Shown here: piece by piece, positions 41,338 to 56,545 of the stretch
Layout of the letters: each line of letters opens with the position of its first letter
Position numbering within the stretch: position 1 is the stretch's first letter
From: Flammeovirgaceae bacterium
Lineage (GTDB): Bacteria > Bacteroidota > Bacteroidia > Cytophagales > Cyclobacteriaceae
NCBI GenBank assembly: GCA_021298015.1
Contig: JAJTGY010000027.1
Location: 1-56,545, forward strand
Direction of reading: 5' to 3'
DNA: 56,545 nucleotides
Notes under the pieces: generated by a model
Databases searched by the model: none
The model's input: the letters and a program-made list of their open reading frames with translations, nothing else
What the model was told of the DNA's origin: nothing
Position numbers and translations under genes: made by a program

Positions 41338-41340
41338 GTA

Positions 41341-42173: not shown

Positions 42174-42199
42174 AAAAACCCCGCGTTTGCGGGGTTTTA
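42174..42199 (-). terminator. intrinsic terminator after the UspA gene
   Basis: Stem AACCCCGC / GCGGGGTT with a GTTT-type loop, with A run on the left and T run on the right. It lies 20 bases after the UspA stop and before the J-domain gene start. It may be bidirectional. Confidence 0.85.
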
Positions 42200-42218
42200 C
42201 ATTAGCACTGAAATCAAA

Positions 42219-43073: not shown

Positions 43074-43140
43074 GAGTTAGGGGTTTAACTGCTTCTGACG
43101 CGGGTAAAAGTAGCAAAAACGACCCCACATAAACAATGAC

Positions 43141-43827
43141 TTACGGCAGACACACCGGCACTTCACCCGGATCGGCCACCGCGTGGCCGTGCGGGTTGCC
43201 CACGCCTTGTATGCCTCTGCCTATCAGTAAGATAGCCGACAACACCAGGGCGATCGCCAGCGCATGGGCTCTCACCCACACCAATCGGTTGGCCAAGCGG
43301 TCGAACAAAGCGATCAATCCGACCATGACCGGCCAGGTTCCCAATCCAAATAAAATCATAAAAAGAGCACCCTCACGGGCACCCGGTAACACAAACGTGT
43401 AGGTGAGCGCCATCAGGGTGAGCCCGCACGGCAACAGCCCGTTGAGCATACCCAGAACAAAGGTGGCGGCATAGCTTTTCCGGGAGAGAAAGTGAGCAAA
43501 AGGTTTTTTGATCTGGGTGGTTAACCACTGGGCGACCGTGCTGATACCCGGCACCTGAATTTTTCTCCACCACCCCAACGCAATCAGTAACAAACCCAAC
43601 CCGAGAGCTAGTGAAATTACCTGCTGGTAAGCCGCCAGATTAAAAACCGATCCGGCTGATGCGGCCAGGGCACCGAGCAGCGCATACACCAGCACACGGC
43701 CCGAATTGTACACCACTTTTGTAAAGGCGAACGGCTGCACACGGGCCACAGCCAGCATGAGCGGGCTGCACATGCCGGCACAATGCAGGCTGCCGGCCAA
43801 ACCCAATATCGCAGCGGTGTACCACAT
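43141..43827 (-). CDS. SafE/TauE-family membrane protein of cbb3 operon
   Basis: 228 residues from ATG 43827 (MWYTAAILGLAGSLHCAGMCSPL), about six helices. The first helix holds HCAGMCSP, a Cys-x3-Cys with a His, as in the UreH-like/SafE proteins found at the end of Bacteroidota cco operons. It likely helps copper supply or cytochrome maturation for cbb3 oxidase (inference); 'sulfite exporter' is only the family label. The start shares one base with the ccoH stop. Confidence 0.87.
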   Translation of the reverse strand: MWYTAAILGLAGSLHCAGMCSPLMLAVARVQPFAFTKVVYNSGRVLVYALLGALAASAGSVFNLAAYQQVISLALGLGLLLIALGWWRKIQVPGISTVAQWLTTQIKKPFAHFLSRKSYAATFVLGMLNGLLPCGLTLMALTYTFVLPGAREGALFMILFGLGTWPVMVGLIALFDRLANRLVWVRAHALAIALVLSAILLIGRGIQGVGNPHGHAVADPGEVPVCLP

Positions 43828-44255
43828 CAGATCACCATTAGCTTTTCGGTATGGTATTCTTTGCCATTCATCGTGAAAGTGACGCTTACGCGATACAAAC
43901 CCGGTTGCCATTGCCGCAACTGAAACTGTACCTCGGATGCCGCGGGCGTCTGAAACTGAAATGTTTCATCGAGGCGGGCATCGGACGGGCGCTGAATTTG
44001 TATTGAACCCGAGGTGATGTCGCTGTAAAACGGCAGCGACAGGCTGACTTCACCGGAAGCAAAACGAATGTCCGGTTTCTGCGGCAGGTTGAGGTAGTTT
44101 TGCTGCCGCTCCATTTTCTCGCTGTGCTTCAACTCCTGCTGATAATAATCACGTGAGATGAGATTGACATCTTCGCGCACACAAATGACCACCAGCGTGG
44201 CAATGAAGGCCGCAAAGAGCACAAACGATACGGTAATCCATTTTCCTGCATTCAT
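43827..44255 (-). CDS. ccoH: FixH/CcoH family cbb3 assembly protein
   Basis: 142 residues: one N-terminal membrane helix (ITVSFVLFAAFIATLVVIC), the RDYYQQELKHSEKMERQQNY segment characteristic of FixH, then a periplasmic beta domain. It stabilises the assembling cbb3 oxidase. It lies 3 bases after ccoG. Confidence 0.9.
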   Translation of the reverse strand: MNAGKWITVSFVLFAAFIATLVVICVREDVNLISRDYYQQELKHSEKMERQQNYLNLPQKPDIRFASGEVSLSLPFYSDITSGSIQIQRPSDARLDETFQFQTPAASEVQFQLRQWQPGLYRVSVTFTMNGKEYHTEKLMVI

Positions 44256-44258
44256 AGC

Positions 44259-45695
44259 TTATGATTTTTTCAGTTTCATGGGGCCAACGAAACGCGCTTT
44301 GGCCGTTACAATTTTTTTATCGCCCCGGTAGATGCCGAACTGCAGCACCGTGCGCGTTTCCGAAAGTTCACTTTCCGGAATGTTCACCATAAAATTACGC
44401 TTCAGAATTCCTTCGTGTGGCACCACCACCGGGTCGGCCCCGATTTTCATCAGCGTGGCCGCTGTGGGCCCTTCCAGCCGAACGTCCAGCGGCATGTCGT
44501 CAAACGTCTTATTCAAAAACTCAATGGTGTACAGATTTGAAATCTGGCCGTCTTCCAATCGGGTGTACAAGGTGCCGGGCGCTTTCAAAATCGTGGTCTC
44601 AATATCTGCGCGGGTAAAAATAAAGTAGCTGAGCACCGACACCAGTATGGTCAGCACCGCGGCATAGCCCATAATGCGGGGTGTCACCAGGCGTGTTTTC
44701 CCCTTCTCAATGGAGTTGAATGACGCATAGCGGATGAGTCCCTTCGGCCGATCCACCTTCACCATTACCTCATCGCAGGCATCCATGCAGGCCGTGCAGT
44801 TGACACACTCCAGTTGCGTGCCGTTGCGAATATCAATGCCCGTGGGGCACACGTGCACGCAAAGCTTGCAGTCGATGCAGTCACCTTTCTTCTCTGTTTC
44901 CACCGCGTGCTTCTTGATTTTCCCGCGGGGCTCACCGCGAATCCAGTCGTAGGCTACCACAATCGAATCTTTCACCAGCAGCACGCCTTGCAGGCGGCCA
45001 TATGGGCAAACGACAATGCAGGCCTGCTCGCGAAACCAGGCAAACACGCCATAAAAAATTCCCGTGAAAATGAGCAGACCGATAAACCCGCTCATGTGTG
45101 CCGTAGGTGGCTGGCTTACAATGTCCACCACCTGATCAACCCCGATCAGGTATGCCATGGCCGTGTGCGCAATGAGAACTGCGATGGCCACAAAAATCAG
45201 TTGCTTGCCCGCTTTCTTTACAATCTTGGCGCCCGTCCACGGGGCCTGATTCAGTCTGCGCTGCTCATTCGCATCGCCTTCAATCCAGTACTCGATTTTG
45301 CGGTAGACCATTTCCATGAAAATGGTTTGCGGGCAAGCCCACCCGCACCACAGCCGCCCGAAGGCCACGGTGAACAAAATGACAAAGACGAACAGCGTAA
45401 TGAGCGTGAGCGCCAGCAGAAAAAAATCCTGAGGCCAGAACACGTGCCCCAGGATGATAAACTTGCGCTCGAAAAAATTCAGCAGCAACAACGGACGGCC
45501 GCCCACCTGGAGGAACGGCCCGCCAAAGAACAAGGCCAAAAGAATCACCGTCACCCAAATTCTGCGGATGTGAAAGGGTCCCGAAGGTTTTTTGGGATAC
45601 ACCCACACCCGTTTGCCTTCGGCATCTACCGTGGCGATGGTGTCTCGAAACTCTTCATCAAACTGATAGAGGTTGTCCTGTCCTGCGTTACTCAT
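44259..45695 (-). CDS. ccoG: cbb3 oxidase accessory protein CcoG (RdxA/FixG)
   Basis: 478 residues with five membrane helices. CGWACPQTIFMEMVYRKIE is followed by two 4Fe-4S ferredoxin motifs, CIDCKLCVHVCPTG and CVNCTACMDACDEVM, and a C-terminal periplasmic immunoglobulin-like domain. CcoG is a cupric reductase needed to load copper into cbb3 oxidase. The start overlaps the ccoP stop by 4 bases. Confidence 0.95.
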   Translation of the reverse strand: MSNAGQDNLYQFDEEFRDTIATVDAEGKRVWVYPKKPSGPFHIRRIWVTVILLALFFGGPFLQVGGRPLLLLNFFERKFIILGHVFWPQDFFLLALTLITLFVFVILFTVAFGRLWCGWACPQTIFMEMVYRKIEYWIEGDANEQRRLNQAPWTGAKIVKKAGKQLIFVAIAVLIAHTAMAYLIGVDQVVDIVSQPPTAHMSGFIGLLIFTGIFYGVFAWFREQACIVVCPYGRLQGVLLVKDSIVVAYDWIRGEPRGKIKKHAVETEKKGDCIDCKLCVHVCPTGIDIRNGTQLECVNCTACMDACDEVMVKVDRPKGLIRYASFNSIEKGKTRLVTPRIMGYAAVLTILVSVLSYFIFTRADIETTILKAPGTLYTRLEDGQISNLYTIEFLNKTFDDMPLDVRLEGPTAATLMKIGADPVVVPHEGILKRNFMVNIPESELSETRTVLQFGIYRGDKKIVTAKARFVGPMKLKKS

Positions 45696-46591
45696 TTGAT
45701 CATGGCCTGTACTTTCACACTATCACTGCTCGCCCCTCCGGGTTCGTACAAATTTCCTTCCGGTGCTTTGGCCTTGGCAGGCGTGGTGCCTTGCAACGTC
45801 AGCACGTAGCTGGATACGTTTTGCATCATCTGCGGACTGAGCACCGAGCCCCAGGCCACCATGTTGGTGCCCGTTACACCATTCTTCACCACGGTAAACA
45901 CGTTGTTGATCGAGCCACCGTGCTTCCAGTACTTGTCCGTCAGGTTGGGCCCGATGTCGCCACCGCCATCGGCCAGGTGACAGGCCGCGCAGTTTTCAAC
46001 GTATATTTTCTTGCCGTCTGCCAGCAGGGCCGGGTCGGCTACGGCTGTCACGGTTTTTTCATCTACCGGGTTGGCCGCCTGAAATTTCCTGAAATTCTCC
46101 TGCGCCACCTTCACTTCGGTGAGGTATTCCTGATCTTGCAGCGGCCACGTGTCCACGATGTGGTAGAACACCAGGTAAACGGCCGCAAAACCGATGGTGG
46201 CATAGAACAACCACTTCCACCACGGGGGCAGGTGATTATCCAGTTCGCGAATGCCATCGTAGTTGTGGTCCATAATTACCGTGGCTTCATTTTCCACCGG
46301 CACGGCATCGGTTGCCGTGTTCATGAACTTCGCCCACCACGAAGGCTCGGGCACATACGGTATGCCTTTGGCTGCGGCCTGCTTGCGCGCCTCTTCGTTT
46401 GTCAAAATTTGAAGCACCTGCAGCATGTATACCGCCACCACAATCACCAGCAGGGCCACTATAAACAACAGCGCCACGGCCAGGTAGAACGGAATCATGG
46501 GATCGGTGGCCACGCTGGTCGCACCGGCATCCTGAGCAACCAGGCCCAGCGGGGCAAGTAATACGGTTACTATTGAAACAAGTTTACGCAT
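45692..46591 (-). CDS. ccoP: cbb3 cytochrome c oxidase subunit III (CcoP), single heme
   Basis: 299 residues. A signal or first helix, a second helix (DPMIPFYLAVALLFIVALLVI), the WWKWLFYATIGFAAVYLVFYH helix seen in CcoP, then a single cytochrome c domain with CAACH at 201-205 and a Met in NMVAWGSVL. Proteobacterial CcoP has two heme-c motifs; I find only one here. It passes electrons to CcoO/CcoN. It is 3 bases after the small CcoQ-like gene. Confidence 0.92.
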   Translation of the reverse strand: MRKLVSIVTVLLAPLGLVAQDAGATSVATDPMIPFYLAVALLFIVALLVIVVAVYMLQVLQILTNEEARKQAAAKGIPYVPEPSWWAKFMNTATDAVPVENEATVIMDHNYDGIRELDNHLPPWWKWLFYATIGFAAVYLVFYHIVDTWPLQDQEYLTEVKVAQENFRKFQAANPVDEKTVTAVADPALLADGKKIYVENCAACHLADGGGDIGPNLTDKYWKHGGSINNVFTVVKNGVTGTNMVAWGSVLSPQMMQNVSSYVLTLQGTTPAKAKAPEGNLYEPGGASSDSVKVQAMIK

Positions 46592-46594
46592 GGT

Positions 46595-46789
46595 TCAAAG
46601 GTTTGAGGTTTGGTCAATCGAATCGAGGTTGGAATCTTCCAGCGGTTTGCGCCCCATCATGTCCGTATACGGTTTATCAATGGTGAAAAACCACCACAGC
46701 ATGAGCAGGAAAAACAAAAAGAAGATGACAAAGGAGATCACCGGCCAGATGGCCACGTTATCGATGCTCTGAAGAATATTCTTATACAT
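46595..46789 (-). CDS. ccoQ: CcoQ-like small cbb3 subunit
   Basis: 64 residues: one membrane helix (WPVISFVIFFLFFLLMLWWFF) followed by a short polar tail (TIDKPYTDMM). Size and position between ccoNO and ccoP identify it as the CcoQ/FixQ-type subunit that stabilises the complex. Confidence 0.85.
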   Translation of the reverse strand: MYKNILQSIDNVAIWPVISFVIFFLFFLLMLWWFFTIDKPYTDMMGRKPLEDSNLDSIDQTSNL

Positions 46790-46796
46790 ACATCAA

Positions 46797-48938
46797 TCAG
46801 TTACCGGTGGCTACGTCTTCTTTCACTTTCACATCGCGGCCCAGGCGTTGCAGATACGCGATCAACGCCACGATCTCGGCATCTCCGCTCACCTCATACC
46901 CTTCCAACTTCAGATTTTCGGTAATGCGGCCCGCTTGCTTTTCCAGATCGGCAATGGCCTGCTCTTCGTAGCCTTCCGGATACGGCACACCCAACGTGCG
47001 CATGGCACTGATCTTGGCGGGCGTAGTTGATTTATCAATGCTTTGCTCGTACAGCCATTTGTAGGCCGGCATAATGGAGCCGTTGGAAATTTCGCCCGGC
47101 TCATAGAAGTGGCGGTAGTGCCAGCTATCGGCATACTTGCCCCCAATGCGGTGCAAATCCGGCCCCGAACGTTTCGAACCCCACAGGAACGGGTGATCAT
47201 ATACATACTCGCCCGCCTTCGAATACTCCCCGTCTTTCGGGTCGTAGCGCTGCACTTCGCTGCGGAACGGACGAATCATCTGCGAGTGACAACTCACGCA
47301 ACCTTCGCGGATGTAAATATCGCGGCCCTGCAGTTCCAATGGCGTATACGGCTTCACGGAAGCAATGGTGGGCACATTCGATTTAATTAAGAAGGACGGC
47401 ACCATTTCAATGGCACCCCCAATGATGATGGCGATAAAAGCAAGAATGGTGAACAACACCGGTTTGTGCTCCAGGGCGCGGTGCCAGTAGCCACCGGGCG
47501 CCTCCTGCGTCTTCATCAGCGGAGCCACGTCCACTTCTTCGTTGGCCATAAACTTTCCGCTGTAGGCCGTCTTCACTAAGTTGTAGGCCATCAGGAACAC
47601 GCCCACCAGGTAGAGGAAACCACCCAAGGCCCGAATCATATAGAAGGGCATGATCTTGGTCGAAGTCTCCAGGAAGTTCTGATACACCAGGTAACCTTCA
47701 GGGGTGAACTCTTTCCACATCAGGCTCTGCATCACCCCTGCGATGTACATGGGCAGGGCGTAGAGAATAATGCCGAGCGTGCCCGACCAGAAGTGCACAT
47801 TAGCCAACTGGGTGGAGTACAACCTGGTGCCCCACATTTTGGGCACCAGCCAGTAGAACATACCGAAGATGAGGAAGCCGTTCCAGCCCAAACCGCCCAC
47901 GTGCACGTGCGCGATAATCCAATCCGTAAAGTGCGCAATGGCGTTTACGTTTTTCAGCGACAGCAGCGGACCTTCCAGGGTGGCCATACCATAGGCCGTG
48001 ACGGCCACCACCATAAATTTCAAAACCGGATCTTCACGCACACGGTCCCACGCGCCACGCAACGTGAGCAAGCCGTTGAGCATGCCACCCCAGCTCGGGG
48101 CAATCAGCATCACCGAAAACACCACGCCCAGCGACTGCGCCCAATCGGGCAACGCGCTGTACAACAAGTGGTGCGGGCCGGCCCATATATAAATAAAGAT
48201 CAAGGACCAGAAGTGGATCACCGACAGGCGGTACGAATACACCGGGCGGTTGGCCGCCTTCGGCAAGAAGTAATACATAATGCCCAGGAACGGGGTGGTG
48301 AGGAAAAACGCCACTGCATTGTGGCCATACCACCACTGCACCAGCGCATCCTGAACACCGGCATAGAACGAATAGCTCTTGAACAGCGACACCGGCAACT
48401 CGAAAGAGTTCACCACGTGCAGCACGGCCACGGTAATAAACGTGGAGATGTAAAACCAGATGGCCACATACATGTGGTTCTCCCTGCGCTTGATAATCGT
48501 GCCGATCATGTTGATACCAAACACCACCCACACCAGCGTAATGGCGATGTCAATGGGCCACTCCAGCTCGGAGTATTCTTTGGAGGTGGTAATACCCAGC
48601 GGCAGCGTAATGGCCGCGGCCAGAATGATCAGTTGCCAGCCCCAGAAGTGCGTCCAGCTGAGGGCATCGCTGAACATGCGCGCCTTGAGCAACCGCTGCA
48701 TGCTGTAGTACACCCCGGCAAACATGGCATTGCCCACAAAGGCAAAAATCACCGCGTTGGTGTGCAGCGGGCGAATGCGCCCGAAGGTGGTGTATTGAAA
48801 ATCAAAGTTGAACAGTGGATAAAACAACTGAATGGCAATCAGCAAGCCCACCGTCATGCCCACAATGCCGAAGATGACAGTGGCAATCATGAAAGCCTTG
48901 ACAATCTTATTGTCGTATTGGATGCGTTCGAGTTCCAT
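46797..48938 (-). CDS. ccoN: cbb3 cytochrome c oxidase, fused subunits I and II (CcoN-CcoO)
   Basis: 713 residues. Residues 1-480 are CcoN, with 12 helices, metal ligands including WWYGHNAVAFF and the CuB pair in GPHHLLYSALPDW, and HVHVGGLGWNGF. A helix then leads to CcoO (about 500-713), which binds one heme c at CVSCH (547-551) and has the Met ligand in GSIMPAYKW. It is the catalytic unit of high-affinity oxygen respiration in the inner membrane. The fusion is usual in Bacteroidota. First gene of ccoNO-Q-P-G-H-safE; spacings of 3-8 bases or overlaps show one operon. Confidence 0.96.
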   Translation of the reverse strand: MELERIQYDNKIVKAFMIATVIFGIVGMTVGLLIAIQLFYPLFNFDFQYTTFGRIRPLHTNAVIFAFVGNAMFAGVYYSMQRLLKARMFSDALSWTHFWGWQLIILAAAITLPLGITTSKEYSELEWPIDIAITLVWVVFGINMIGTIIKRRENHMYVAIWFYISTFITVAVLHVVNSFELPVSLFKSYSFYAGVQDALVQWWYGHNAVAFFLTTPFLGIMYYFLPKAANRPVYSYRLSVIHFWSLIFIYIWAGPHHLLYSALPDWAQSLGVVFSVMLIAPSWGGMLNGLLTLRGAWDRVREDPVLKFMVVAVTAYGMATLEGPLLSLKNVNAIAHFTDWIIAHVHVGGLGWNGFLIFGMFYWLVPKMWGTRLYSTQLANVHFWSGTLGIILYALPMYIAGVMQSLMWKEFTPEGYLVYQNFLETSTKIMPFYMIRALGGFLYLVGVFLMAYNLVKTAYSGKFMANEEVDVAPLMKTQEAPGGYWHRALEHKPVLFTILAFIAIIIGGAIEMVPSFLIKSNVPTIASVKPYTPLELQGRDIYIREGCVSCHSQMIRPFRSEVQRYDPKDGEYSKAGEYVYDHPFLWGSKRSGPDLHRIGGKYADSWHYRHFYEPGEISNGSIMPAYKWLYEQSIDKSTTPAKISAMRTLGVPYPEGYEEQAIADLEKQAGRITENLKLEGYEVSGDAEIVALIAYLQRLGRDVKVKEDVATGN

Positions 48939-48966
48939 GCGCTAGGTTTTGGTTTTTTTTCGAGCC

Positions 48967-48974
48967 TAAAAGTA
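48967..48974 (-). promoter_or_regulatory. -7-like box of the cco operon
   Basis: On the minus strand TACTTTTA, one base off TAnnTTTG; the same octamer stands before the uspA gene. The leader to ATG 48938 would be about 25 bases. Confidence 0.4.
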
Positions 48975-49019
48975 GACCCGCTCAAATCGCACCCGAATGA
49001 GGTTTCTTAGGCTAAATCC

Positions 49020-49031
49020 TGACTTTTGTCA
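49020..49031. promoter_or_regulatory. possible Crp/Fnr-family site upstream of cco operon
   Basis: TGAC-TTTT-GTCA is a perfect palindrome centred about 60 bases before the predicted start site, the place of a class I activator. Oxygen control of cbb3 oxidase by Fnr-type regulators is established elsewhere; the match here is suggestive only. Confidence 0.35.
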
Positions 49032-49100
49032 TGTTTTAATTGAGCCTGCACCACAGGGGGTGGCAACAGGTTGAAGAAGAATACGCGCAGCGTTGCACCA

Positions 49101-49577
49101 TCAGGCAAAAAAACTGGCCACCAGGTGCCAGCCCATCACGGCCGTAACGGCCAGCTTCAATACCGTGCCCAGTAAAAATCCCACCAGCGAACCCAGGGCC
49201 GACTTCAGCGCCACCTCCGAGTTTTGGTTATTCATCAACTCGGCCGCCATCGCCCCGAAAAACGGACCGATCACCAACCCCCACGGGCCCAGGAACAAAC
49301 CCACCAGGAGGCCCACCGTGGCCCCCCACATGCCCGCGCGCGTGCCGCCCAGCTTTTTCGTACTGTACACGGGAATCCAGTAATCCAGCAGCGTAACCAC
49401 CAGCGCAACGGCCAGCCACACCAGAATAAAACGCGTTGTAAAGGGCGGCTCCGCCCGCAACTGCTGCACCAGCAGCGCCAAAAAACCCAGCGGTGGGCCC
49501 GGCAACGCAGGCAAAAAGCAGCCCAGCACACCCAGCACCAACAACAGCCCGCCCACCACCATCCACAGTATTTCCAT
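49101..49577 (-). CDS. DUF456 membrane protein
   Basis: 158 residues, four to five helices, very Gly/Leu-rich. MEILWMVVGGLLLVLGVLGCFLPALPGPPLGFLALLV and GATVGLLVGLFLGPWGLVIGPFFGAMAAEL are the two halves of the DUF456 pattern. Function unknown. It is divergent from the SnoaL-like gene and 120 bases upstream of (and on the same strand as) the cco operon. Confidence 0.9.
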   Translation of the reverse strand: MEILWMVVGGLLLVLGVLGCFLPALPGPPLGFLALLVQQLRAEPPFTTRFILVWLAVALVVTLLDYWIPVYSTKKLGGTRAGMWGATVGLLVGLFLGPWGLVIGPFFGAMAAELMNNQNSEVALKSALGSLVGFLLGTVLKLAVTAVMGWHLVASFFA

Positions 49578-49648
49578 AGCGGAAAAATAGATTTTTCAAC
49601 CGTCTTGTCCATATTCGTGCACCCAACGGTACTGGGCAAACAACCCCC

Positions 49649-50134
49649 ATGCATATGAAAACCTGCATGTTCGCACTTCGCTATTCCGCCAAAAGCCTGC
49701 AACTCCTGCCCCATGCCCTGGTCGTAGTGTTGGGCACCCTGGCGGCCTGCAACACCTCGCCCACCCCGGAAGCGGAAAACGAAAAAATCGTGCGCAGTAT
49801 GTTTGCTGCGTTTAACCGGCACCACTGGAAAGCCATGGCCGAACACTACGTGGACTCCGCTTATTTTCTCGACCCCGCCTTTGGCCCCGACTACGTGCAG
49901 CAAACCCATGCCGAAATCGTGATCAAATACAACGAGATGCAATCCCTGTTTCCCGATCTGCACGATGAGGTGGTTACCCTCGTAGCCAGCGGCAACCGCG
50001 TGGCCGTAGAGTTTGTAGCCACCGGCACCCAGCCCGATGGCGCCACCTTTCGGCTGCCCATCAGTTCCGTGCTCACCATCGAAAACGGAAAGATTGTGCG
50101 GGACGCCACCTACTACAACAACTGCCCGATGTAA
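49649..50134 (+). CDS. SnoaL/NTF2-like lipoprotein
   Basis: 161 residues. An N-terminal export segment with lipobox (LGTLAAC), then an NTF2-like fold of about 120 residues: VRSMFAAFNRHHWKAMAEHYVDSAYFLDP, ...EIVIKYNEMQSLFPDLHDEVVTL...VAVEFVATGTQPDGATFRLPISSVLTIENGKIVRDATYYNN. This is the SnoaL-like polyketide-cyclase family, mostly small-ligand binding. The ATG at 49655 is an equally good start. Confidence 0.85.
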   Translation: MHMKTCMFALRYSAKSLQLLPHALVVVLGTLAACNTSPTPEAENEKIVRSMFAAFNRHHWKAMAEHYVDSAYFLDPAFGPDYVQQTHAEIVIKYNEMQSLFPDLHDEVVTLVASGNRVAVEFVATGTQPDGATFRLPISSVLTIENGKIVRDATYYNNCPM

Positions 50135-50159
50135 TTTTTTTTATCTCTCTTTTTCGGGG

Positions 50160-50275
50160 GCATGTTGGCGCGAGGCGCGCCACCACCGGGCCTTCCACTG
50201 CTACTCCTCGCCCCCACCGCACGGGCCCACGCGGCTGCGGGGTATCCGTTGCAGTCCCTTGCCCGGGCGTTAAAC
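50160..50275. repeat. GC-rich extragenic element after the SnoaL gene
   Basis: Very GC-rich non-coding stretch with the palindrome TGGCGCG / CGCGCCA at 50167-50183. On the minus strand it reads GTTTAACGCCC, GGGACTGCAACGGATA, CCCCGCAGCCGCG, a word order I associate with dispersed extragenic elements in this phylum. No gene is supportable. Confidence 0.4.
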
Positions 50276-50287
50276 ATCAAAAGCCGC

Positions 50288-50326
50288 ATGTTTAGTTTGG
50301 TCACGCGGGCTACCTAAACATTTTTT
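50288..50326 (+). terminator. terminator-like hairpin before the integrase region
   Basis: Perfect 8-bp stem ATGTTTAG / CTAAACAT followed by a T run. It separates the SnoaL gene from the recombinase gene. Confidence 0.55.
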
Positions 50327-50400
50327 GCATTTCCACCCCATCAAAATTGGTTGCAATCGTTTATATTCGTTTGCCGAACGTATAGAGCCGGACGTTGTGC

Positions 50401-51483
50401 ATGAGCACCAAGACCAAAAATAGCATTCAGCCCGCCACACACCGCAATCAGTCAGTCATCTTCATTCGTTTTCCGTTTGATGACAACGAAAATACCCGGA
50501 TAAAAAAATGGCCCGATGTGCGCTGGAGCCAAACCCAACGAGCCTGGTATGTACCTGACACGTTGGCCAATCGGAAAAAACTCGGGTTGCTTAGCCACTC
50601 GGGTAAAGAGGCCTATCACCGAATTGACCCGATTAATCAACCTGCGCTGGACAGCCTGCTTCAAACGCTAACATTGAAAGGCTATAGTGCTAACACTACC
50701 AAAGTGTATCGGCAGGAGTTTATCCAACTGCTGGCCTTGCTTGATACAAAACCTGTTTCAACCCTTACGGTTGACGAATTAAAAAGATATTTTGCCTATT
50801 GTCTCAATCATCTAAAGCTGAGCGAACACACGCTCCACAGCCGAATTAACGCGGTCAAGTTCTACTTTGAACAAGTATTGCAACGCGACAAATTCTTGTT
50901 CAGAATACCTCGGCCGAAGAAGCCCCTGCTCCTTCCCAAAGTTATCAGCGAAGAAAAAATACTAAACGGATTGCTAAGCGTAAGGAACCTGAAACACAAA
51001 GCCATGCTGTTTACTGCTTACAGCGCGGGCCTGCGGGTAAGTGAGGTGGTGATGTTAAAGGTGACTGATATTGACAGCGACCGCATGCAAATACGAGTAG
51101 CTGCAGCCAAAGGCAAAAAAGATCGAATGGTAACCTTGGCCAGGGCAACATTACTAATACTGCGCGAATACGTGCGGGAGTATAAACCAAAAAAGTATCT
51201 TTTTGAAGGGCAGAATTGTGGTGAACCCTACAGCACGCGCAGTGCGCAAAGCGTATTTAATCGGGTGTTCAAAAAAATGGCGCTTCCACCCACTATTAGC
51301 TTTCACAGCCTTCGCCATAGTTATGCTACGCATCTTTTGGAAAATGGCACTGATATACGCTACATTCAAGAACTGCTGGGGCACAACGACATAAAAACCA
51401 CGCTACGCTATACGCATGTGAGTAATAAAGAGTTGGGCAAAATAGAAAGCCCGCTTGATAAACTTATGGGAATGAGGAGCTGA
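50401..51483 (+). CDS. tyrosine recombinase of the cassette array (non-IntI)
   Basis: 360 residues from ATG 50401. All catalytic residues are present: Arg212 (SAGLRVSEV), a beta-hairpin Lys in AAAKGKKDR, His302-x2-Arg305 (SFHSLRHSYATH), His328 (LLGHNDIKTT) and Tyr337 (LRYTHVS). The C-terminus ESPLDKL is Xer/IntI-like, but the 30-residue insertion that defines IntI is missing: about 60 residues of ordinary XerD-like sequence separate KGKKDR from HSLRH. An extra N-terminal domain of about 80 residues (VIFIRFPFDDNENTRIKKW, then RAWYVPDT) precedes the SAM-like core-binding domain. It lies directly before the cassettes, in the same direction. Confidence 0.92.
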   Translation: MSTKTKNSIQPATHRNQSVIFIRFPFDDNENTRIKKWPDVRWSQTQRAWYVPDTLANRKKLGLLSHSGKEAYHRIDPINQPALDSLLQTLTLKGYSANTTKVYRQEFIQLLALLDTKPVSTLTVDELKRYFAYCLNHLKLSEHTLHSRINAVKFYFEQVLQRDKFLFRIPRPKKPLLLPKVISEEKILNGLLSVRNLKHKAMLFTAYSAGLRVSEVVMLKVTDIDSDRMQIRVAAAKGKKDRMVTLARATLLILREYVREYKPKKYLFEGQNCGEPYSTRSAQSVFNRVFKKMALPPTISFHSLRHSYATHLLENGTDIRYIQELLGHNDIKTTLRYTHVSNKELGKIESPLDKLMGMRS

Positions 51484-51606
51484 AACAGCTGGTTGTATTG
51501 CCGCAATCGCCTAAGCGATTGCAGATTTCGTATTGTCGCTGATAATGAACTGATTAGGCAAACTACGGCCGTTGGGGTAGGTTAGAAACATGCGTATATT
51601 TGAGAG
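51484..51606 (+). other. candidate primary attachment region (attI-like)
   Basis: 123 bases between the recombinase stop and the first cassette. It holds a perfect hairpin at 51503-51522 (GCAATCGC-CTAA-GCGATTGC) and, near its end, AGAAACA 10 bases or so before the GTTGTGC at 51606-51612. The latter recalls the right arm of sites A-C but has no left arm. If the array behaves like an integron, this is where new cassettes would enter. Confidence 0.45.
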
Positions 51607-51623
51607 TTGTGCGCAATCTTTTC
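51606..51623 (+). repeat. cassette 1 left terminal inverted repeat
   Basis: GTTGTGCGCAATCTTTTC matches the reverse complement of 52176-52193 at 17 of 18 positions. The right copy stands at the base of hairpin site A. Confidence 0.8.
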
Positions 51624-51639
51624 GGGACAAATTTGACCA

Positions 51640-52176
51640 ATGATTAAAAGACCAGACGGACTAGCAAGAATCTATCAGAACGGACTACTTCTTCTTGGGA
51701 TCATGTTGATTGCATTCTCAATTAATGAACTTCGGACTCTTTGGACTCCAAAATCAAGTTTAGTTCCTCTAACTGGTACACTACGGACAGCGGACATCTA
51801 TACAACGACAGTAGAGGATAGAAAGGGACACAAAAGTCAAAAGACTGAATTAATTTTCTATTTGAACGAGTTCGATAAAAAATTTGGACTTGTTGAGAAT
51901 ATAGGACAAGACTACTACTCAAAGGACTACGGGGACTTGCTTCGCAAATTGTGGAAAGGGAAAAATATAACAGTTTATGTCAAGGACACTGAGAAAGATT
52001 TCCATGAACCAAAAGTATTTCAAATTGACAGGGACGATTTAACAATTCTGGACTTTGAGACTGTCAAATCCAAAAATAGGTGGCTGACCGCGTTCATGTT
52101 ATTTATGGGACTAGCATCAATAGTTTTGTTTATATGGTTCAGATATCCCGACAAATTGAAAAAAGTATTCGAGTAG
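51640..52176 (+). CDS. cassette 1 protein, two-helix membrane protein of unknown function
   Basis: 178 residues. A membrane helix near residues 15-28 (LLLLGIMLIAFSI), a soluble region of about 110 residues (PLTGTLRTADIYTTTVEDRKGHKSQKTELIFYL...), and a second helix (WLTAFMLFMGLASIVLFIWF). The layout recalls DUF3592-type proteins but the match is loose. The gene fills its cassette exactly: it starts 34 bases after the cassette edge and its stop codon overlaps the first base of the right terminal repeat. It is AT-rich and has no neighbour in the cassette. Confidence 0.75.
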   Translation: MIKRPDGLARIYQNGLLLLGIMLIAFSINELRTLWTPKSSLVPLTGTLRTADIYTTTVEDRKGHKSQKTELIFYLNEFDKKFGLVENIGQDYYSKDYGDLLRKLWKGKNITVYVKDTEKDFHEPKVFQIDRDDLTILDFETVKSKNRWLTAFMLFMGLASIVLFIWFRYPDKLKKVFE

Positions 52177-52186
52177 AAAAGACTGC

Positions 52187-52317
52187 GCACAACAGTATGT
52201 TTCTGCAATGGTGCCGTGACGAGTTGGTATAAAGTTTTATCTTCGTTCTACCTTTTCGTTTCGTGGGACAGGACGCGGCTTCGAAAAGGCACCACTGCAG
52301 AAACACAAACGTTGTGC
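52187..52317 (+). repeat. attC-like hairpin site A
   Basis: 131 bases. Outer boxes GCACAAC (52187-52193) and GTTGTGC (52311-52317); inner arms TGTTTCTGCA (52198-52207) with TGCAGAAACA (52296-52305), and GGTGCC with GGCACC. Short unpaired stretches lie between boxes, and a loop of about 72 bases (TAAAGTTTTATCTTCGTT ... ACAGGACGCGGCTTCG) is conserved among sites A-C. Two box pairs, extrahelical bases and a GTT at the right box reproduce attC architecture. Confidence 0.88.
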
Positions 52318-52609
52318 ACCAGGCGCGGGACGCGTCTCCGTAGACGGGACGCGGCAGACGACACAACGCTCGACTTCGCAGACGGTGAAGCAAAATCAAA
52401 ACAACATCAGGACGACAATTATTTCCCGCGGACAGAACGTGGTCACTTTATCACTTTTTCGCACCGCGACACATCGCAGCGGACGACTTGAAAAGGCAAA
52501 ACTGAACACGACCCTACGTTTTTCTAACAGTGGACTCGGACTCGTCAATGAAAGATAACAGACGACTTGCGACAAGTCGTGAACTAATTGACGGTTGACG
52601 CGCCCGAGT
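52318..52609. other. cassette 2 body, no recognisable gene
   Basis: About 290 bases. Frames that cross it are short, run into the hairpin sites and look like no protein. Ends still match as terminal repeats (GTTGTGCAC at 52311, GTGCACAAC at 52608-52616). It could be a non-coding cassette, an RNA or promoter cassette, or a decayed gene. Confidence 0.5.
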
Positions 52610-52746
52610 GCACAACACAATGTTTCTGCTATGGTGCGGTGACGTGTTGCCAAAAGTTTATATCTTCGTTCCACGTTTGGTTTCGGGGACAGGACGCGGC
52701 TTCGCGGCTTCGGAAGCGCACCACAGCAGAAACACACACGTTGGTA
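52610..52746 (+). repeat. attC-like hairpin site B
   Basis: 137 bases. Left box GCACAAC (52610-52616), arms TGTTTCTGCT / AGCAGAAACA and GGTGCG / CGCACC, right box GTTGGTA (52740-52746). Left and right boxes agree only in the GTTG/CAAC part; the remaining bases of the right box belong to cassette 3. The compensated changes in the arms (GCT/AGC, GCG/CGC) show that the stem is kept by selection. Confidence 0.88.
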
Positions 52747-52758
52747 GCAATAGGGCCC
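52740..52758 (+). repeat. cassette 3 left terminal inverted repeat
   Basis: GTTGGTAGCAATAGGGCCC pairs with 55419-55437 at 17 of 19 positions, although the two ends are 2.7 kb apart. This private match shows that both ends belong to one unit. Confidence 0.85.
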
Positions 52759-52939
52759 GGACAAATTTGTGTTTCAAAAAACAACGGAAGACAATTTTCA
52801 AACAAAAATTTCCCACGTGGACAAGTGAACGGCTTCGCAGATAACTTTGACTTTGAAAAATTAGACGTGGACAGACTAAAAAATAATACAGCCGACCCTT
52901 CGCATTTTTAAGAAGATTGTGCTTCGACTTCCCTGCGCA
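52759..52939. other. leader of cassette 3, no recognisable gene
   Basis: AT-rich sequence with one forward frame that stays open to a TAA at 52909-52911 but begins inside hairpin site B and resembles nothing known. Nothing else supportable until the hairpin at 52940. 53001-53107 is likewise AT-rich leader before the methyltransferase. Confidence 0.4.
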
Positions 52940-53000
52940 TTTGGCACATGCCATAGCCGCGCAAACCCACCGCGAGCCCAAAGCTATGGCAAGAGCCAAA
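52940..53000 (+). repeat. second-family attC-like hairpin (D)
   Basis: Boxes TTTGGC (52940-52945) / GCCAAA (52995-53000) and GCCATAGC (52950-52957) / GCTATGGC (52983-52990), with four unpaired bases on each side between box pairs and a 25-base loop. Same two-box design as sites A-C, but unrelated sequence. It lies before the restriction-modification genes. Confidence 0.65.
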
Positions 53001-53107
53001 CCCAACCCACGTGAACATTTAATTAAGAGATAGAACCTAAACATAACCCACCAGAACCGCCAAAAAAGTCGTTTATTTTATTAAATTTGGCCAAATCCTT
53101 TGGACAG

Positions 53108-54085
53108 ATGGAAAAAATTAAATTCATAGACTTGTTTTGTGGAATTGGTGGGTTTAGAGTTGCAATGGATGAATCCTGCCGTGAGAATGATTTGATTCCT
53201 GAATGTGTTTTCTCATCTGACATTGACCCATATTGCCAAGACAGTTATGAGGCGAATTTCGGCCATCGACCACATGGTGACATAACCAAGGTTGACGAAA
53301 AAGATATACCAGACCACGATATTTTATTTGCGGGATTTCCATGCCAGCCTTTCAGTATTATCGGTCAAATGCAGGGCTTCAACGATATTAGAGGAACACT
53401 TTTCTTTGATATTGTTAGAATCATAAAGCATAAAAAACCGAAAGCGTTTGTGCTCGAAAATGTAAAACAACTTGTTGGACATGATGGAGGTAAAACGTTG
53501 AAGACAATCATTAATACTCTTCAAAAGAAATTGGGTTATCATGTTCAATATGCTGTGCTAAATGCACTCGACTATGGCCTTCCCCAAAAAAGAGAAAGAG
53601 TTATAATTGTTGGACACAGAGACCCAATACTTTTTAGCTATCCATCACCCATTAGACCCTTCAAACCTCTTTCTCAAATTTTAGAAAAGAAGGTTGATAA
53701 AAAGCATTATGCTTCGGACTATATAGTTGAAAAGAGAAAACAAAAGCATAAGTCAGCTTATAAACTTTCCATATGGCACGAGAATAAGGCGGGCAATATT
53801 TGCTCTTATCCATACTCGTGTGCATTGAGAGCTGGAGCATCTTATAACTATTTGCTAGTAAATGGTGAAAGGAGACTGACTCCTAGAGAAATGTTTAGGT
53901 TGCAGGGCTTTCCAGATTCGTACAAGATAGTGGTCAATGATGGTCAGGCAAGGAAGCAAGCAGGAAACGCGGTACCAGTAAATTTGGTAAAAGCTGTTAT
54001 TCTAAAGCTAATACCATATGTTGCAACTTCTCTTGATATGACATCAGTATTAAGAGAATACGAAGTGAGTTATAATAGACGCTAA
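53108..54085 (+). CDS. DNA cytosine-5 methyltransferase
   Basis: 325 residues from ATG 53108 (MEKIKFIDLFCGIGGFR). Motif I FCGIGGFRVAMD, motif IV with catalytic Cys79 (GFPCQPFS), motif VI (VLENVKQL), motif VIII (QKRERVIIVG), then the target-recognition region, motif IX (LTPREMFRLQGFPDSY) and motif X (QAGNAVPVNLVKAV). A longer TTG start at 53087 is rejected. It protects the host from the endonuclease encoded next. The stop shares a base with the next ATG (TAATG). Strongly AT-rich. Confidence 0.95.
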   Translation: MEKIKFIDLFCGIGGFRVAMDESCRENDLIPECVFSSDIDPYCQDSYEANFGHRPHGDITKVDEKDIPDHDILFAGFPCQPFSIIGQMQGFNDIRGTLFFDIVRIIKHKKPKAFVLENVKQLVGHDGGKTLKTIINTLQKKLGYHVQYAVLNALDYGLPQKRERVIIVGHRDPILFSYPSPIRPFKPLSQILEKKVDKKHYASDYIVEKRKQKHKSAYKLSIWHENKAGNICSYPYSCALRAGASYNYLLVNGERRLTPREMFRLQGFPDSYKIVVNDGQARKQAGNAVPVNLVKAVILKLIPYVATSLDMTSVLREYEVSYNRR

Positions 54086-54834
54086 TGAGCAAGAAGTCTC
54101 CGAAATTAAGGACAGTAAATAAATCCTTACCGCCATATCCATTAAATGAATTTCCAAAAGAGTTCCCTTACATTCTCGGAAGAGAACTTGTGTATTTACT
54201 AGCATCTAAAGGGAAGCCAATTCTAGAGGGTCCTGAATGGGAATCAATATTTGCAACTTGTATTGGCGCAGAATGGAATCCGTCAAATGTTGGACTAGAC
54301 GATGTAATTTTAGGGAATACAGCATGGGGAGCTAAAACGGTTAAAGCAACGAATCCATCTAAGCAAAAAAAGGTTCGTTTAATTTCAGGTCGTAATTCAC
54401 CAGTATATTCATTCGGTGACAAGATTGACACAAATGCAGACCCTAATTTAGTAGGCAAGTCAATATTAGAAATATGGAATGAGCGTGTCTCTTCAATTAG
54501 AGAGAAATTTCAAAATCTTAGGACGGTTGTTCTTGTCAAGTCAAACGACCTTACCGAGGTTGTAGTTTTTGAATTTGATACAATTCGATATGACCCTGAG
54601 CTATTCGCATGGGAATGGAACAAAAATTCAAACTTAGAAGGAATAGAAAAGTCCAGTACTGAGCATAGATTTACATGGCAACCACATGGTTCTCAATTCA
54701 CAATTATTGAGGACGTACCAGAGCAAGGATTGGTAATCAAAATTAAACAACCACCCATTCTTGATAAAGCAAAAATTTTAACAACACTCGGATTCGATAA
54801 ATCTTGGGTAACCATTACTCAGAAAAATGGCTGA
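54085..54834 (+). CDS. probable type II restriction endonuclease
   Basis: 249 residues, no export signal. Candidate catalytic segment GLDDVILGNTAWGAKTVK (Asp cluster followed by a GAK lysine, near residues 72-89), then ISGRNSPVYSFGD and VGKSILEIWNERVSSI. The PD-(D/E)xK assignment is plausible but not certain; I cannot name the isoschizomer. The context is strong: it sits between and overlaps both a C5 methyltransferase (1 base) and a Vsr gene (8 bases), the classic type II order. Confidence 0.75.
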   Translation: MSKKSPKLRTVNKSLPPYPLNEFPKEFPYILGRELVYLLASKGKPILEGPEWESIFATCIGAEWNPSNVGLDDVILGNTAWGAKTVKATNPSKQKKVRLISGRNSPVYSFGDKIDTNADPNLVGKSILEIWNERVSSIREKFQNLRTVVLVKSNDLTEVVVFEFDTIRYDPELFAWEWNKNSNLEGIEKSSTEHRFTWQPHGSQFTIIEDVPEQGLVIKIKQPPILDKAKILTTLGFDKSWVTITQKNG

Positions 54835-55231
54835 TACGTTCTCAAAAGAAGAACGTTCTAGAATAATGCGACAGGTAAAAAGTAGTCGCAATAAATCAAC
54901 AGAAATCGTACTGACAAACTTTTTCAGAGAGAACAAAATTCTTGGTTGGAGAAGAAACTACAAACTTACGGGGAAGCCAGATTTTACTTTCTTGAACAAT
55001 CGTGTTGTTGTTTTTGTAGATGGTTGCTTTTGGCATGGACATAATTGCAGGAACACAAAACCAAGCAGTAACAAAGAATATTGGACTAATAAAATAAAGA
55101 GAAATAAACAGCGTGACAAAGTGGTAACTCAAACCTTGACCGAAAAAGGGTGGACTGTTTGTAGAATTTGGGAATGCGAACTTAAAAAGTCAAGTAAGTT
55201 GCAAAAACTAAAATTGTTTTTCAAAGAGTAA
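54827..55231 (+). CDS. vsr: very short patch repair endonuclease
   Basis: 134 residues. N-terminal MADTFSKEERSRIMRQVKSS, catalytic Asp in GKPDFTF, metal/zinc and His region VFVDGCFWHGHNC, and RIWECEL near the C-terminus. Vsr nicks T:G mismatches formed by deamination of 5-methylcytosine, so it guards the sites of the linked methyltransferase. It overlaps the endonuclease gene by 8 bases, so the three genes are translationally coupled. Confidence 0.93.
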   Translation: MADTFSKEERSRIMRQVKSSRNKSTEIVLTNFFRENKILGWRRNYKLTGKPDFTFLNNRVVVFVDGCFWHGHNCRNTKPSSNKEYWTNKIKRNKQRDKVVTQTLTEKGWTVCRIWECELKKSSKLQKLKLFFKE

Positions 55232-55238
55232 GCAATTC

Positions 55239-55297
55239 GCACACACATTGTCTGGCCGCACTTACAACCCACAACCAAAGCCAGCCAATAAGTGTGC
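55239..55297 (+). repeat. third-family attC-like hairpin (E)
   Basis: Arms 55239-55256 and 55280-55297 pair at 15 of 18 positions with internal mismatches; loop 23 bases. It starts 8 bases after the vsr stop, as an attC lies after its cassette gene. Its sequence is unlike sites A-C or D. With D it brackets the restriction-modification module inside cassette 3. 55298-55418 shows no gene. Confidence 0.6.
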
Positions 55298-55418
55298 TTA
55301 GTTTTGTGTAAGTGGACAAAGTAGTAAGTGAAAAATGCCCCATCGCACGACTGACAATAAAGATTGGTATAAGATAAGCGGGTGACGAAAGACAAGGCTA
55401 CGAATGGAATGTGGAGAA

Positions 55419-55437
55419 GGGCCCTACAGCTACCAAC
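55419..55437 (+). repeat. cassette 3 right terminal inverted repeat
   Basis: Reverse complement of 52740-52758 with two central mismatches. It ends in TACCAAC, the left box of site C. Confidence 0.85.
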
Positions 55438-55560
55438 AAAATGTTTCTGCAATGGTGCCGTGACGAGTTGGTTTAAAGTTTTATCTTCGTTCCACGTTGG
55501 GTTTCGTGTGACAGGGCGCGGCTTCGAAATGGCACCACTGCAGAAACACAAACGTTGTAG
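55431..55560 (+). repeat. attC-like hairpin site C
   Basis: 130 bases. Left box TACCAAC (55431-55437), arms TGTTTCTGCA / TGCAGAAACA and GGTGCC / GGCACC, conserved loop as in A and B, right box GTTGTAG (55554-55560). The outer boxes mismatch beyond GTTG because the right box already belongs to cassette 4. Confidence 0.88.
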
Positions 55561-55579
55561 GTAAGCATGCCGGACAAAA

Positions 55580-56452
55580 ATGAGACTACAAATAATCATA
55601 TGGACACTGTTGACAATTTGCATTCAAGCAAACGGACAGAAAAAGGAACGAACTGAAGAACAAAAGCTGTTTGACAAAGCGATTGAATTACACGAAGACG
55701 AGGAACTAGATTCTGCATTAATTGTATTTAGACAATTTAGGACACAATATCCAAATTCTGAATTATCACCAAGAGTTCATTACAACATCGGATATATCCT
55801 AAATGAGCAAGGAAAAAGAGATGAAGCAAAAATCGTTTTTAAAGAAATCCTTGCAAGTAACTATAATGAAAAAGACCCAGGCGGACGTGGACTAATGGGG
55901 CCACAATATGCCCTTTATAAACATTTCAGTTGTGAGCAATTGGCTGACATCTACATAACTGAAAAGAATCATGTTGAAGCGGAAAAATATGTACGACTGT
56001 TTGACAAAAAATATCCTTACGAACACTTTTGTGGAAATGAATTGACAGCTTACAAAATCTTTAAGTCAGGAAGTTACGCTAAAGTATATGACGGACAAGG
56101 AAAAACAGATGAAGCCATAAAACAACTTATTCCCCATATATTCAACACCGGTCTTGCCGACAATGACGAATTAATCAAAGACCTAATTGTTTTACTTGAC
56201 AAGAGATACAAAACTGATGAGATAAAGGGAGAATTAATTAAGTCTATATCGACATTAAAAATTACTGACTCGAAAAAAAGAGGAGAAATAGCAACAATAG
56301 AACTTTATGGTTTTAAAATTAATGTGGACGAGAACGGACTATTTGACCTTAATAATCCGGACTTTGAAATGAATACCAAACTCGAAGGACAAGAGAAGTA
56401 TCTTAAAGTCATATGGACAAATGAATTGTTTGAACAATATAACGTGGAGTAG
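55580..56452 (+). CDS. cassette 4 TPR-repeat secreted protein
   Basis: 290 residues with a signal peptide (MRLQIIIWTLLTICIQANGQ). TPR-like pairs: KLFDKAIELHEDEELDSALIVFRQFRTQYPN, RVHYNIGYILNEQGKRDEAKIVFKEIL, and CEQLADIYITEKNHVEAEKYVRLFDKKYP. The C-terminal 110 residues are not recognised. It is AT-rich and starts 20 bases after the right box of site C. The stop codon lies in GAGTAGGCA, a 9-mer repeated 12 bases on at the end of the group II intron, so the original C-terminus may have been altered. Confidence 0.8.
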   Translation: MRLQIIIWTLLTICIQANGQKKERTEEQKLFDKAIELHEDEELDSALIVFRQFRTQYPNSELSPRVHYNIGYILNEQGKRDEAKIVFKEILASNYNEKDPGGRGLMGPQYALYKHFSCEQLADIYITEKNHVEAEKYVRLFDKKYPYEHFCGNELTAYKIFKSGSYAKVYDGQGKTDEAIKQLIPHIFNTGLADNDELIKDLIVLLDKRYKTDEIKGELIKSISTLKITDSKKRGEIATIELYGFKINVDENGLFDLNNPDFEMNTKLEGQEKYLKVIWTNELFEQYNVE

Positions 56453-56455
56453 GCA

Positions 56456-56545
56456 ATCGAGTAGGCAAAGGGGAGTTTCACCCCTAAGCCTCTCACAGAA
56501 CCGTGCTTGATAGTCTCCCATCACCCGGCTCTTCGTATCCCTCCA
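56456..56545 (-). mobile_element. 3' end of a group II intron (domains V and VI), partial
   Basis: On the minus strand 56531-56498 is a 34-base domain V: GAGCCG at its start, GGTTC at its end, a GAGA-type tetraloop in the middle. Domain VI follows, with stem AGGC / GCCT and a bulged A in GCCTACTCGAT. The intron would end near 56456; its body and any reverse transcriptase lie beyond the window. Orientation is opposite to the cassettes. The exact 3' splice point is uncertain because GAGTAGGCA occurs twice (56447-56455 and 56459-56467). Confidence 0.82.

What the first reader, a model, noticed from the sequence alone, without database searches (positions are those of the whole stretch)
50401..56545. 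Integron-like gene-cassette system with a non-IntI recombinase
A tyrosine recombinase gene is followed in the same direction by single-gene, gene-less and multi-gene units separated by three ~130-base imperfect hairpins (52187-52317, 52610-52746, 55431-55560). The hairpins share attC architecture: two pairs of inverted boxes, unpaired bases between them, a GTT at the right outer box. Their sequence is not the attC consensus: the boxes are GCACAAC/GTTGTGC and the inner arms TGTTTCTGCA/TGCAGAAACA, with a long conserved loop. Gene 1 fits between two sites with 34 bases before and none after. I know of no described integron class with this site.
Basis: partly seen in the sequence, partly recalled or inferred. 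Interest (0 to 1): 0.95.

Follow-up and report, generated by a model that had tools for sequence, protein, structure and literature searches.

The report
Integron-like system without integron integrase
Many Bacteroidota bacteria carry rows of gene cassettes, each ending in a DNA hairpin, beside a recombinase that lacks the extra domain of integron integrases and that likely moves the cassettes by recombining those hairpins, so nature seems to have built integrons in a second way.

Summary
The window has a 360-aa Xer-type tyrosine recombinase, an attI-like site, and cassettes bounded by three hairpin sites of one build: AAC-N4-stem (18 positions, one mismatch)-loop-stem-N5-CGTT. Each of the three complete cassettes has a start complementary to its own far end, as integron cassettes do, but over more bases. 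A covariance model found 95 sites in 40 of 80 loci around relatives of the recombinase (22 of the 95 trained it); 94 point away from it. CGTATAT stands 13 nt before the first cassette in 21 of 37 loci and before none of 64 distal cassettes. One apparently gene-less cassette occurs six times in three species, 91% identical inside and 31-34% outside, ending at C|GTT. The recombinase lacks the IntI additional domain (59 residues where IntI has 100) and lies outside the IntI clade; IntI passes its cut-off in 1 of 37 genomes of the class, the new sites occur in 29 of 37. I found no description in the open-access library searched. Recombination and its strand are inferred; no assay was possible. Verdict: a new, widespread integron variant on another recombinase lineage.

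The parts
50401..51483 (+). Tyrosine recombinase, 360 aa; catalytic domain about 50983-51429, SAM-like core-binding domain about 50647-50889
   Evidence: PF00589 8e-36, PF13495 6e-12; TIGR02249 166 bits against cut-off 265; AlphaFold mean pLDDT 84.7, pTM 0.57, best Foldseek hit IntI4 2a3v
50422..50583 (+). Extra N-terminal beta-beta-alpha-beta-beta-alpha domain (residues 8-61) with a conserved W-S-x-x-x-x-x-W-Y motif; predicted nucleic-acid binding (inferred)
   Evidence: weak DUF5710 matches in 10 of 16 family members; first-ranked but non-significant Foldseek hit SMARCAL1 HARP domain 4o66 (E 0.42)
51590..51608 (+). attI-like site ATGCGTATATTTGAGAG|TT
   Evidence: CGTATAT fixed 13 nt before the first cassette start in 21 of 37 loci, about 0.05 expected, absent at 64 distal starts
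51607..52311 (+). Cassette 1: one ORF (51640-52176, 178 aa, no Pfam, NCBIfam or PADLOC match)
   Evidence: start complementary to own end, 17 of 18
52191..52313 (+). attC-like site A; inner stem 52198-52215 with 52288-52305
52312..52740 (+). Cassette 2, apparently gene-less (only mechanical ORFs overlapping the sites); six copies in three species
52614..52742 (+). attC-like site B
52741..55554 (+). Cassette 3, three genes: C5 cytosine methyltransferase 53108-54085, 249-aa protein 54085-54834 (no Pfam, NCBIfam or PADLOC match; perhaps the cognate restriction enzyme, inferred), Vsr endonuclease 54827-55231
   Evidence: start complementary to own end, 16 of 18
55435..55556 (+). attC-like site C
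55555..56455 (+). Cassette 4, cut by the intron and contig end: TPR protein 55580-56452
56456..56533 (-). 3' part of a group II intron, opposite strand, where the fourth site would be expected
   Evidence: RF00029 56 bits, E 3e-9

Best explanation
This is an integron-like platform in which a Xer-type tyrosine recombinase without the IntI additional domain (50401-51483) is predicted to insert circular gene cassettes at the adjacent attI-like site (51590-51608) and to recombine them at attC-like hairpins (A, B, C) whose cassette boundary is C|GTT. SHOWN by sequence comparison: recombinase, attI-like motif and same-strand array are linked in many genomes; cassettes mostly carry a same-strand gene; start and own end of a cassette are complementary; a cassette has moved as an exact unit between neighbours and species. 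INFERRED: this enzyme catalyses the moves; its substrate is one folded strand, probably the bottom one, where the conserved A.C mismatches become G.T pairs; it recognises the shape of the hairpin (AAC/GTT, the unpaired 4+5 or 3+6 spacer, the two mismatch positions), perhaps with its extra N-terminal domain in place of the I2 helix. A further prediction: a free circular cassette has the complete long stem (own start pairs with own end), whereas in the array the outer stem is split between neighbours, so integration should be favoured over excision.
For: Site build and covariation: 33 sites, 93.5% of cells paired, all 17 inner-stem pairs with changes on both sides, slid controls 36-44% (22 of the 33 come from other genomes by a scanner that asks for a stem, so this count leans to the structure). 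The A of the A.C mismatch, not asked for, stands in 72 of 76 sites; C precedes GTT in 103 of 104 (the model had learned it). Orientation: 94 of 95 sites point away from the recombinase, in 40 of 80 loci, 24 with the array downstream of the gene and 15 upstream. Cassette logic: 64 cassettes, mean start-to-own-end score 7.0 against 1.4 for other pairs, best of 5000 permutations 2.3. attI: exact CGTATAT upstream of the first cassette in 22 of 37 loci, 21 at the same offset, 0.05 expected, 0 of 64 distal starts. ORFs: 54 cassettes same strand, 2 opposite, 8 without an ORF of 80 aa. Movement: six copies of cassette 2 in three species, inside 0.85-0.97 identical, 100-nt flanks mean 0.34 (highest 0.51) and 0.31 (highest 0.37). 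Not IntI: 58-61 residues between the K motif and the HxLRH box in 76 of 80 relatives (4 not measurable), 59 here, 100 in 18 of 20 IntI (2 not measurable); IntI one clade, SH-aLRT 99, without it. Circular junction folds 7.6 kcal/mol better than the array junction on average, better in 39 of 45. Linked also on a plasmid, five same-strand sites.
Against: 40 of 80 loci have no site found: in 39 of them the DNA held ends within 4 kb of the recombinase on one side, but 27 of these have 7.9 kb or more on the other side without a site, and L073 has 10 kb on both sides. In 29 relatives, close recombinases (E<=1e-60) occur in 17 and sites in 25: 16 have both, 9 have sites without a close recombinase, 1 the reverse. 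In 15 of 37 loci the exact attI motif is missing. Self-match is under 6 points in 17 of 64 cassettes, 0-1 in the three of L030, where a site may have been missed. Fold energies differ little between strands (bottom better in 49 of 76 whole sites, 57 of 76 for the arms alone), so strand choice is weakly supported. No biochemical data.
Confidence: 0.86

Rival explanations
1. The cassettes are real and moved by this recombinase, but on ordinary double-stranded DNA at the CGTT core; the hairpin serves another purpose, such as ending transcription between cassettes.
For: Xer-type enzymes act on double-stranded DNA (established knowledge) and this one lacks the I2 helix; the attI-like site looks like a two-armed double-stranded core (my reading); strand fold energies differ little.
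Against: The boxes next to the crossover vary except C, GTT and one A, so a core read by sequence is thin; the inner stem covaries in 17 of 17 pairs with a near-fixed span and mismatch; own start pairs with own end over about 12-18 nt.
Confidence: 0.1
2. A canonical integron or CALIN: an IntI elsewhere in the genome moves these cassettes.
For: Integrons and CALINs are known in the phylum (PMC9024848, PMC8618304; passages read). A broken paralogue on contig C15 of this genome groups beside IntI in the tree (SH-aLRT 80), but it lacks the middle of the catalytic domain and has the N-terminal domain of the new family.
Against: No protein of the genome passes the IntI cut-off (best E 9.6e-24); 29 of 37 genomes of the class have the sites, 1 of 37 has IntI and that one has no sites at 1e-5; 4 of 104 sites fit GTTRRRY and 0 fit both box consensuses; of 22 listed sites in IntI-bearing genomes 12 lie within 25 kb of the non-IntI type and 1 near IntI.
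Confidence: 0.02
3. The hairpins are REP- or MITE-like intergenic repeats that spread by a transposase, and the recombinase is incidental.
For: Repeated palindromes between genes; some singletons (5 of 16 in this genome).
Against: Orientation 94 of 95, start-to-own-end matching, attI motif, and cassettes that move with exact ends at C|GTT are not expected.
Confidence: 0.01
4. An invertible-segment or shufflon system that flips genes.
For: Tyrosine recombinases of Bacteroidota drive inversions (recalled).
Against: Sites of an array share one orientation and so do the cassette genes: 94 of 95 sites; ORFs 54 same strand, 2 opposite.
Confidence: 0.01

Closest known systems
Integrons (IntI / attI / attC; class 1-3 and sedentary chromosomal integrons)
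   Same: Tyrosine recombinase beside an attI-like site and a same-strand array of mostly single-gene, sometimes gene-less or multi-gene, cassettes; sites are imperfect palindromes with two box pairs and an unpaired spacer; boundary at GTT; start of a cassette complementary to its own end
   Different: Recombinase has no IntI additional domain and lies outside the IntI clade; box consensus GTTRRRY/RYYYAAC not met; inner stem 17-18 positions with a conserved A.C mismatch and no clear extrahelical bases; own-end complementarity extends to 12-18 nt; attI is a conserved CGTATAT motif; extra N-terminal domain
XerC/XerD-dif and elements such as CTXphi that use host XerCD
   Same: Same recombinase superfamily, no I2 domain; CTXphi integrates as a single-stranded hairpin through host XerCD (PMC4792948, PMC7790495; passages read)
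   Different: Own dedicated recombinase outside the XerC/D clade, cassette arrays, attI-like site
CALIN elements
   Same: The C27 array of this genome has no recombinase relative on its contig
   Different: Sites do not fit the attC boxes and no IntI passes the cut-off in the genome
Bacteroidota tyrosine recombinases named 'integrase/recombinase XerD' or 'site-specific tyrosine recombinase/integron integrase'
   Same: The protein family itself, names as given by sources
   Different: Names match generic models (NF040815 bears the second name; 186 of 220 bits here); they imply no site or array

Membership tests
Integron | IntI recombinase with the IntI-specific additional domain (I2) | tested here: not met
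   59 residues between K motif and HxLRH box against 100 in 18 of 20 IntI; HMM matches split around the domain; 166 of 265 bits; outside IntI clade
Integron | attC box consensus RYYYAAC / GTTRRRY (consensus recalled) | tested here: not met
   GTTRRRY 4 of 104, RYYYAAC 7 of 104, both 0
Integron | attC architecture: imperfect palindrome, two box pairs, unpaired central spacer | tested here: met
Integron | Extrahelical bases that fix the strand | tested here: inconclusive
   Only a conserved A.C mismatch and an unequal spacer (4/5 or 3/6); arms fold better on the bottom strand in 57 of 76
Integron | attI beside the recombinase gene | tested here: met
   Conserved motif at the first cassette start in 22 of 37 loci; insertion there not shown by assay
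Integron | Array of same-strand cassettes | tested here: met
   94 of 95 sites in one polarity; ORFs 54 same, 2 opposite, 8 none
Integron | Cassettes move as exact units | tested here: met
   Six copies of cassette 2 in three species, by comparison only
Integron | Recombination of folded bottom strand by the enzyme | not testable with these tools
   needs an assay
Integron | Cassette promoter Pc and SOS control | not tested
   no call made
XerC/XerD-dif | Member of the XerC/D clade | tested here: not met
   13 Xer rows form one side of a branch, SH-aLRT 100, without it (rooted there); TIGR02224 170 of 335 and TIGR02225 165 of 330 bits

The most novel reading that the evidence does not exclude
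A second, IntI-independent kind of integron runs through the Bacteroidota: a Xer-type recombinase with a HARP-like N-terminal domain instead of the I2 helix captures circular cassettes by recombining one folded strand of a hairpin at a double-stranded attI, and each cassette carries its own closing stem that makes insertion favoured over loss.
Probability: 0.55. Interest if true: 0.97.

Novelty: new variant of a known kind. Interest (0 to 1): 0.93.

Why it matters
[quoted passage not shown] A hairpin-cassette system on a recombinase without that domain would give a living test case for how single-strand cassette capture can work or arise. Detection that asks for the IntI-specific domain (PMC9668308, PMC9024848, passages read) would pass over these recombinases; R1 sites occur in 29 of 37 genomes of the class sampled, two or more in 26.
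Full report
WHAT IS THERE. The window is one whole contig (C85) of a 3.61 Mb, 115-contig genome. Its right end holds a 360-aa tyrosine recombinase (50401-51483) and, in the same direction, three copies of a hairpin site: A 52191-52313, B 52614-52742, C 55435-55556, measured from AAC to GTT. A simple scanner (AAC, 3-6 nt, stem, loop, stem, 3-6 nt, GTT) finds the three sites, all with spacers 4 and 5 and an 18-position stem with one mismatch; five shuffles of window 40001-56545 gave none.

CASSETTE LOGIC. In integrons the start of a cassette is complementary to its own left box, because both come from one circular site (established knowledge). Here the start of cassette 1 (51606) matches the reverse complement of the bases before site A in 17 of 18 places and the start of cassette 3 (52740) those before site C in 16 of 18 (inverted repeats I10 and I13). 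Cassette 2 matches its own end best too.

THE REST OF THE GENOME. A DNA search with site A gave 13 matches, 9 of them on one strand of contig C27, two of those partial; the covariance model gave 16 sites at E<=0.001: 3 on C85, 8 on C27 and 5 single ones on other contigs. The C27 array (read) starts after a half site (CACAAACACAAACG|TT); no relative of the recombinase was found on C27, so that array resembles a CALIN. Its cassettes carry, among others, a DUF433/DUF5615 pair, a TPR protein, an Lcl_C protein, a polysaccharide deacetylase, and PadR with a MacB/FtsX permease.

RELATIVES. The recombinase belongs to a large family (all 8000 scored candidates under E 0.001). One scan of genome contigs with an alignment of 16 relatives kept the best 80 of 553 loci, itself a capped list. 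With the scanner, sites of the same build but unrelated stem sequence appeared beside some of them, mostly with spacers 3 and 6 and a span near 121 (42 raw scanner hits on the + strand against 4 in one shuffle of each locus). Thirty-three sites (11 of this genome, 22 of others) were aligned: 93.5% of pair cells are standard pairs, all 17 inner pairs change on both sides somewhere, slid controls give 36-44%. The 22 were chosen by a scanner that asks for a stem, so this count leans towards the structure; the conserved A.C mismatch was not asked for, and its A is present in 72 of 76 sites.

ORIENTATION. The covariance model R1 found 107 sites at E<=0.1 in 84 sources. In the 80 loci there are 95 (22 of them in the model), in 40 loci: 68 to the right on the plus strand, 26 to the left on the minus strand, 1 left-plus with E 0.04; 24 loci have the array downstream of the gene, 15 upstream. 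So all but one weak hit point away from the recombinase, whichever way its gene faces. Forty loci have no site. In 39 of them the DNA held ends within 4 kb of the recombinase on one side; 27 of these have 7.9 kb or more on the other side without a site, and L073 has 10 kb on both.

START AND END OF CASSETTES. For 64 neighbouring site pairs the start-to-own-end score averages 7.0, other pairings 1.4, the best of 5000 permutations 2.3; start and end within one site score 1.8. Seventeen of the 64 score under 6. In the 47 pairs scoring 6 or more, positions 1-6 after GTT match in 46-47 of 47, and position 8 is A in 47 of 47 while it matches in 1. Over 104 sites, C precedes GTT in 103, A stands at position 8 in 96, and GTTRRRY fits 4. 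The site is therefore C|GTT-N7-A, not the canonical box.

attI. The start of the first cassette was located only by its match to its own end. Upstream of it stands CGTATAT in 22 of 37 loci with a match of 6 or more, 21 of them at exactly -13; 0.05 would be expected, and none of 64 distal starts has it. In the window it reads ATGCGTATATTTGAGAG|TT at 51590-51608.

MOVEMENT. The inside of cassette 2 was searched in 62 genomes of the genus: 7 match at E<=0.001, among them two copies in this genome, three in G216 and one in G173 over its whole length; the other four genomes match in part or at 68%. The six full copies, aligned with their surroundings, agree from CGTT to CGTT (0.85-0.97, mean 0.91) and differ outside (100-nt flanks on average 0.34 left, highest 0.51, and 0.31 right, highest 0.37), so they stand beside different neighbours. 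This shows exact movement by comparison; it does not show which enzyme did it.

NOT IntI. The family lacks the stretch that holds the IntI additional domain: 58-61 residues between the K motif and HxLRH in 76 of 80 relatives (4 not measurable with my patterns), 59 here, 100 in 18 of 20 IntI (2 not measurable); only 3 of 22 Xer could be measured, at 62. HMM matches to TIGR02249 and to IntI4 2a3v break at that place. In a tree of 62 rows (quick search, LG+G4, rooted on Xer) IntI form one clade (SH-aLRT 99), XerC/D another (100), and the window's protein lies in a third group with its 28 relatives (93). A broken paralogue of this genome (C15) falls beside IntI (80), but it lacks the middle of the catalytic domain and carries the N-terminal domain of the new family. 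In genomes with IntI, of 22 listed R1 hits 12 lie within 25 kb of the non-IntI type and 1 near IntI (only rows listed, whose lists are truncated).

RELATIVES OF THE GENUS AND ORDER. Of 29 genomes, 25 have R1 sites at 0.001, up to 48 in one, and 17 a recombinase at 1e-60; 16 have both, 9 only sites, 1 only the recombinase. Fifteen genomes reached through the loci all have sites, 4 to 34 each.

HOW IT LIKELY WORKS. Predicted: the recombinase binds the folded strand at the AAC/GTT box and at the inner stem on both sides of the unpaired spacer, cuts at C|GTT or CG|TT, and joins it to attI. The bottom strand is more likely, since both conserved A.C mismatches turn into G.T there; arms alone fold better on it in 57 of 76, whole sites in 49 of 76, which is weak support. 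The circular junction folds better than the array junction in 39 of 45 cassettes, by 7.6 kcal/mol on average, hence the prediction that insertion is favoured. AlphaFold gives the recombinase fold with an extra N-terminal domain (pTM 0.57); the nearest solved structure by Foldseek is IntI4. The domain's likeness to HARP is a lead only. At least one relative has this domain twice (P0044, my reading).

KNOWN OR NEW. Works like: an integron. Member of: not of the IntI/attC family as defined, since two defining features were tested and not met. Passages read state that the extra domain distinguishes IntI, and that in Bacteroidetes only In0 had been found before one complete integron in Salinibacter ruber (PMC9024848). 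I saw no description of this system in nine integron searches of an open-access library; preprints and most subscription papers were not searched. It is also on a plasmid: in Chryseobacterium sp. SNU WT5 the relative (42% identical) is annotated 'site-specific tyrosine recombinase/integron integrase' and five R1 sites follow on the same strand.

Noticed in passing
window 56456-56533 (-); L191 18738-20054: A group II intron lies on the opposite strand where the fourth site is expected; the Chryseobacterium plasmid array also holds an opposite-strand group II intron (ltrA), like the attC-targeting introns known from integrons (the last point recalled).
   Followed up: partly
window 53108-55231: Cassette 3 carries a C5 methyltransferase, an unknown 249-aa protein and a Vsr nickase: likely a whole restriction-modification system as one cassette.
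   Followed up: partly
L020 about 10865 (C27): The C27 array begins at a half site (CACAAACACAAACG|TT) without a recombinase relative on the contig, possibly an off-target insertion point.
   Followed up: no
L034, L089, L102, L063: Other size classes of the site occur: about 185-193 nt beside the 124-nt class in L034, L089 and L102, and 84 with about 190 nt in L063. Where the added length lies was not checked.
   Followed up: no
L063 7426-12882: Near-identical cassettes (starts GCACGCCATGCCTTGGAC) repeat in one array of Agriterribacter humi, suggesting recent cassette duplication.
   Followed up: no
P0044: This relative carries the N-terminal W-S-x-x-x-x-x-W domain in two tandem copies.
   Followed up: no
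L020 8131-8785 (-): A cassette holds a DUF433/DUF5615 gene pair, a toxin-antitoxin-like arrangement.
   Followed up: no
L005 (G000 C15): A shortened paralogue of the recombinase in this genome keeps the N-terminal domain and the HxLRH end but lacks the middle of the catalytic domain.
   Followed up: partly
L182, L183, L184 (congeners): Congeners with recombinases 36-41% identical have other sequences than CGTATAT before the first cassette, so attI seems to differ between subfamilies.
   Followed up: no
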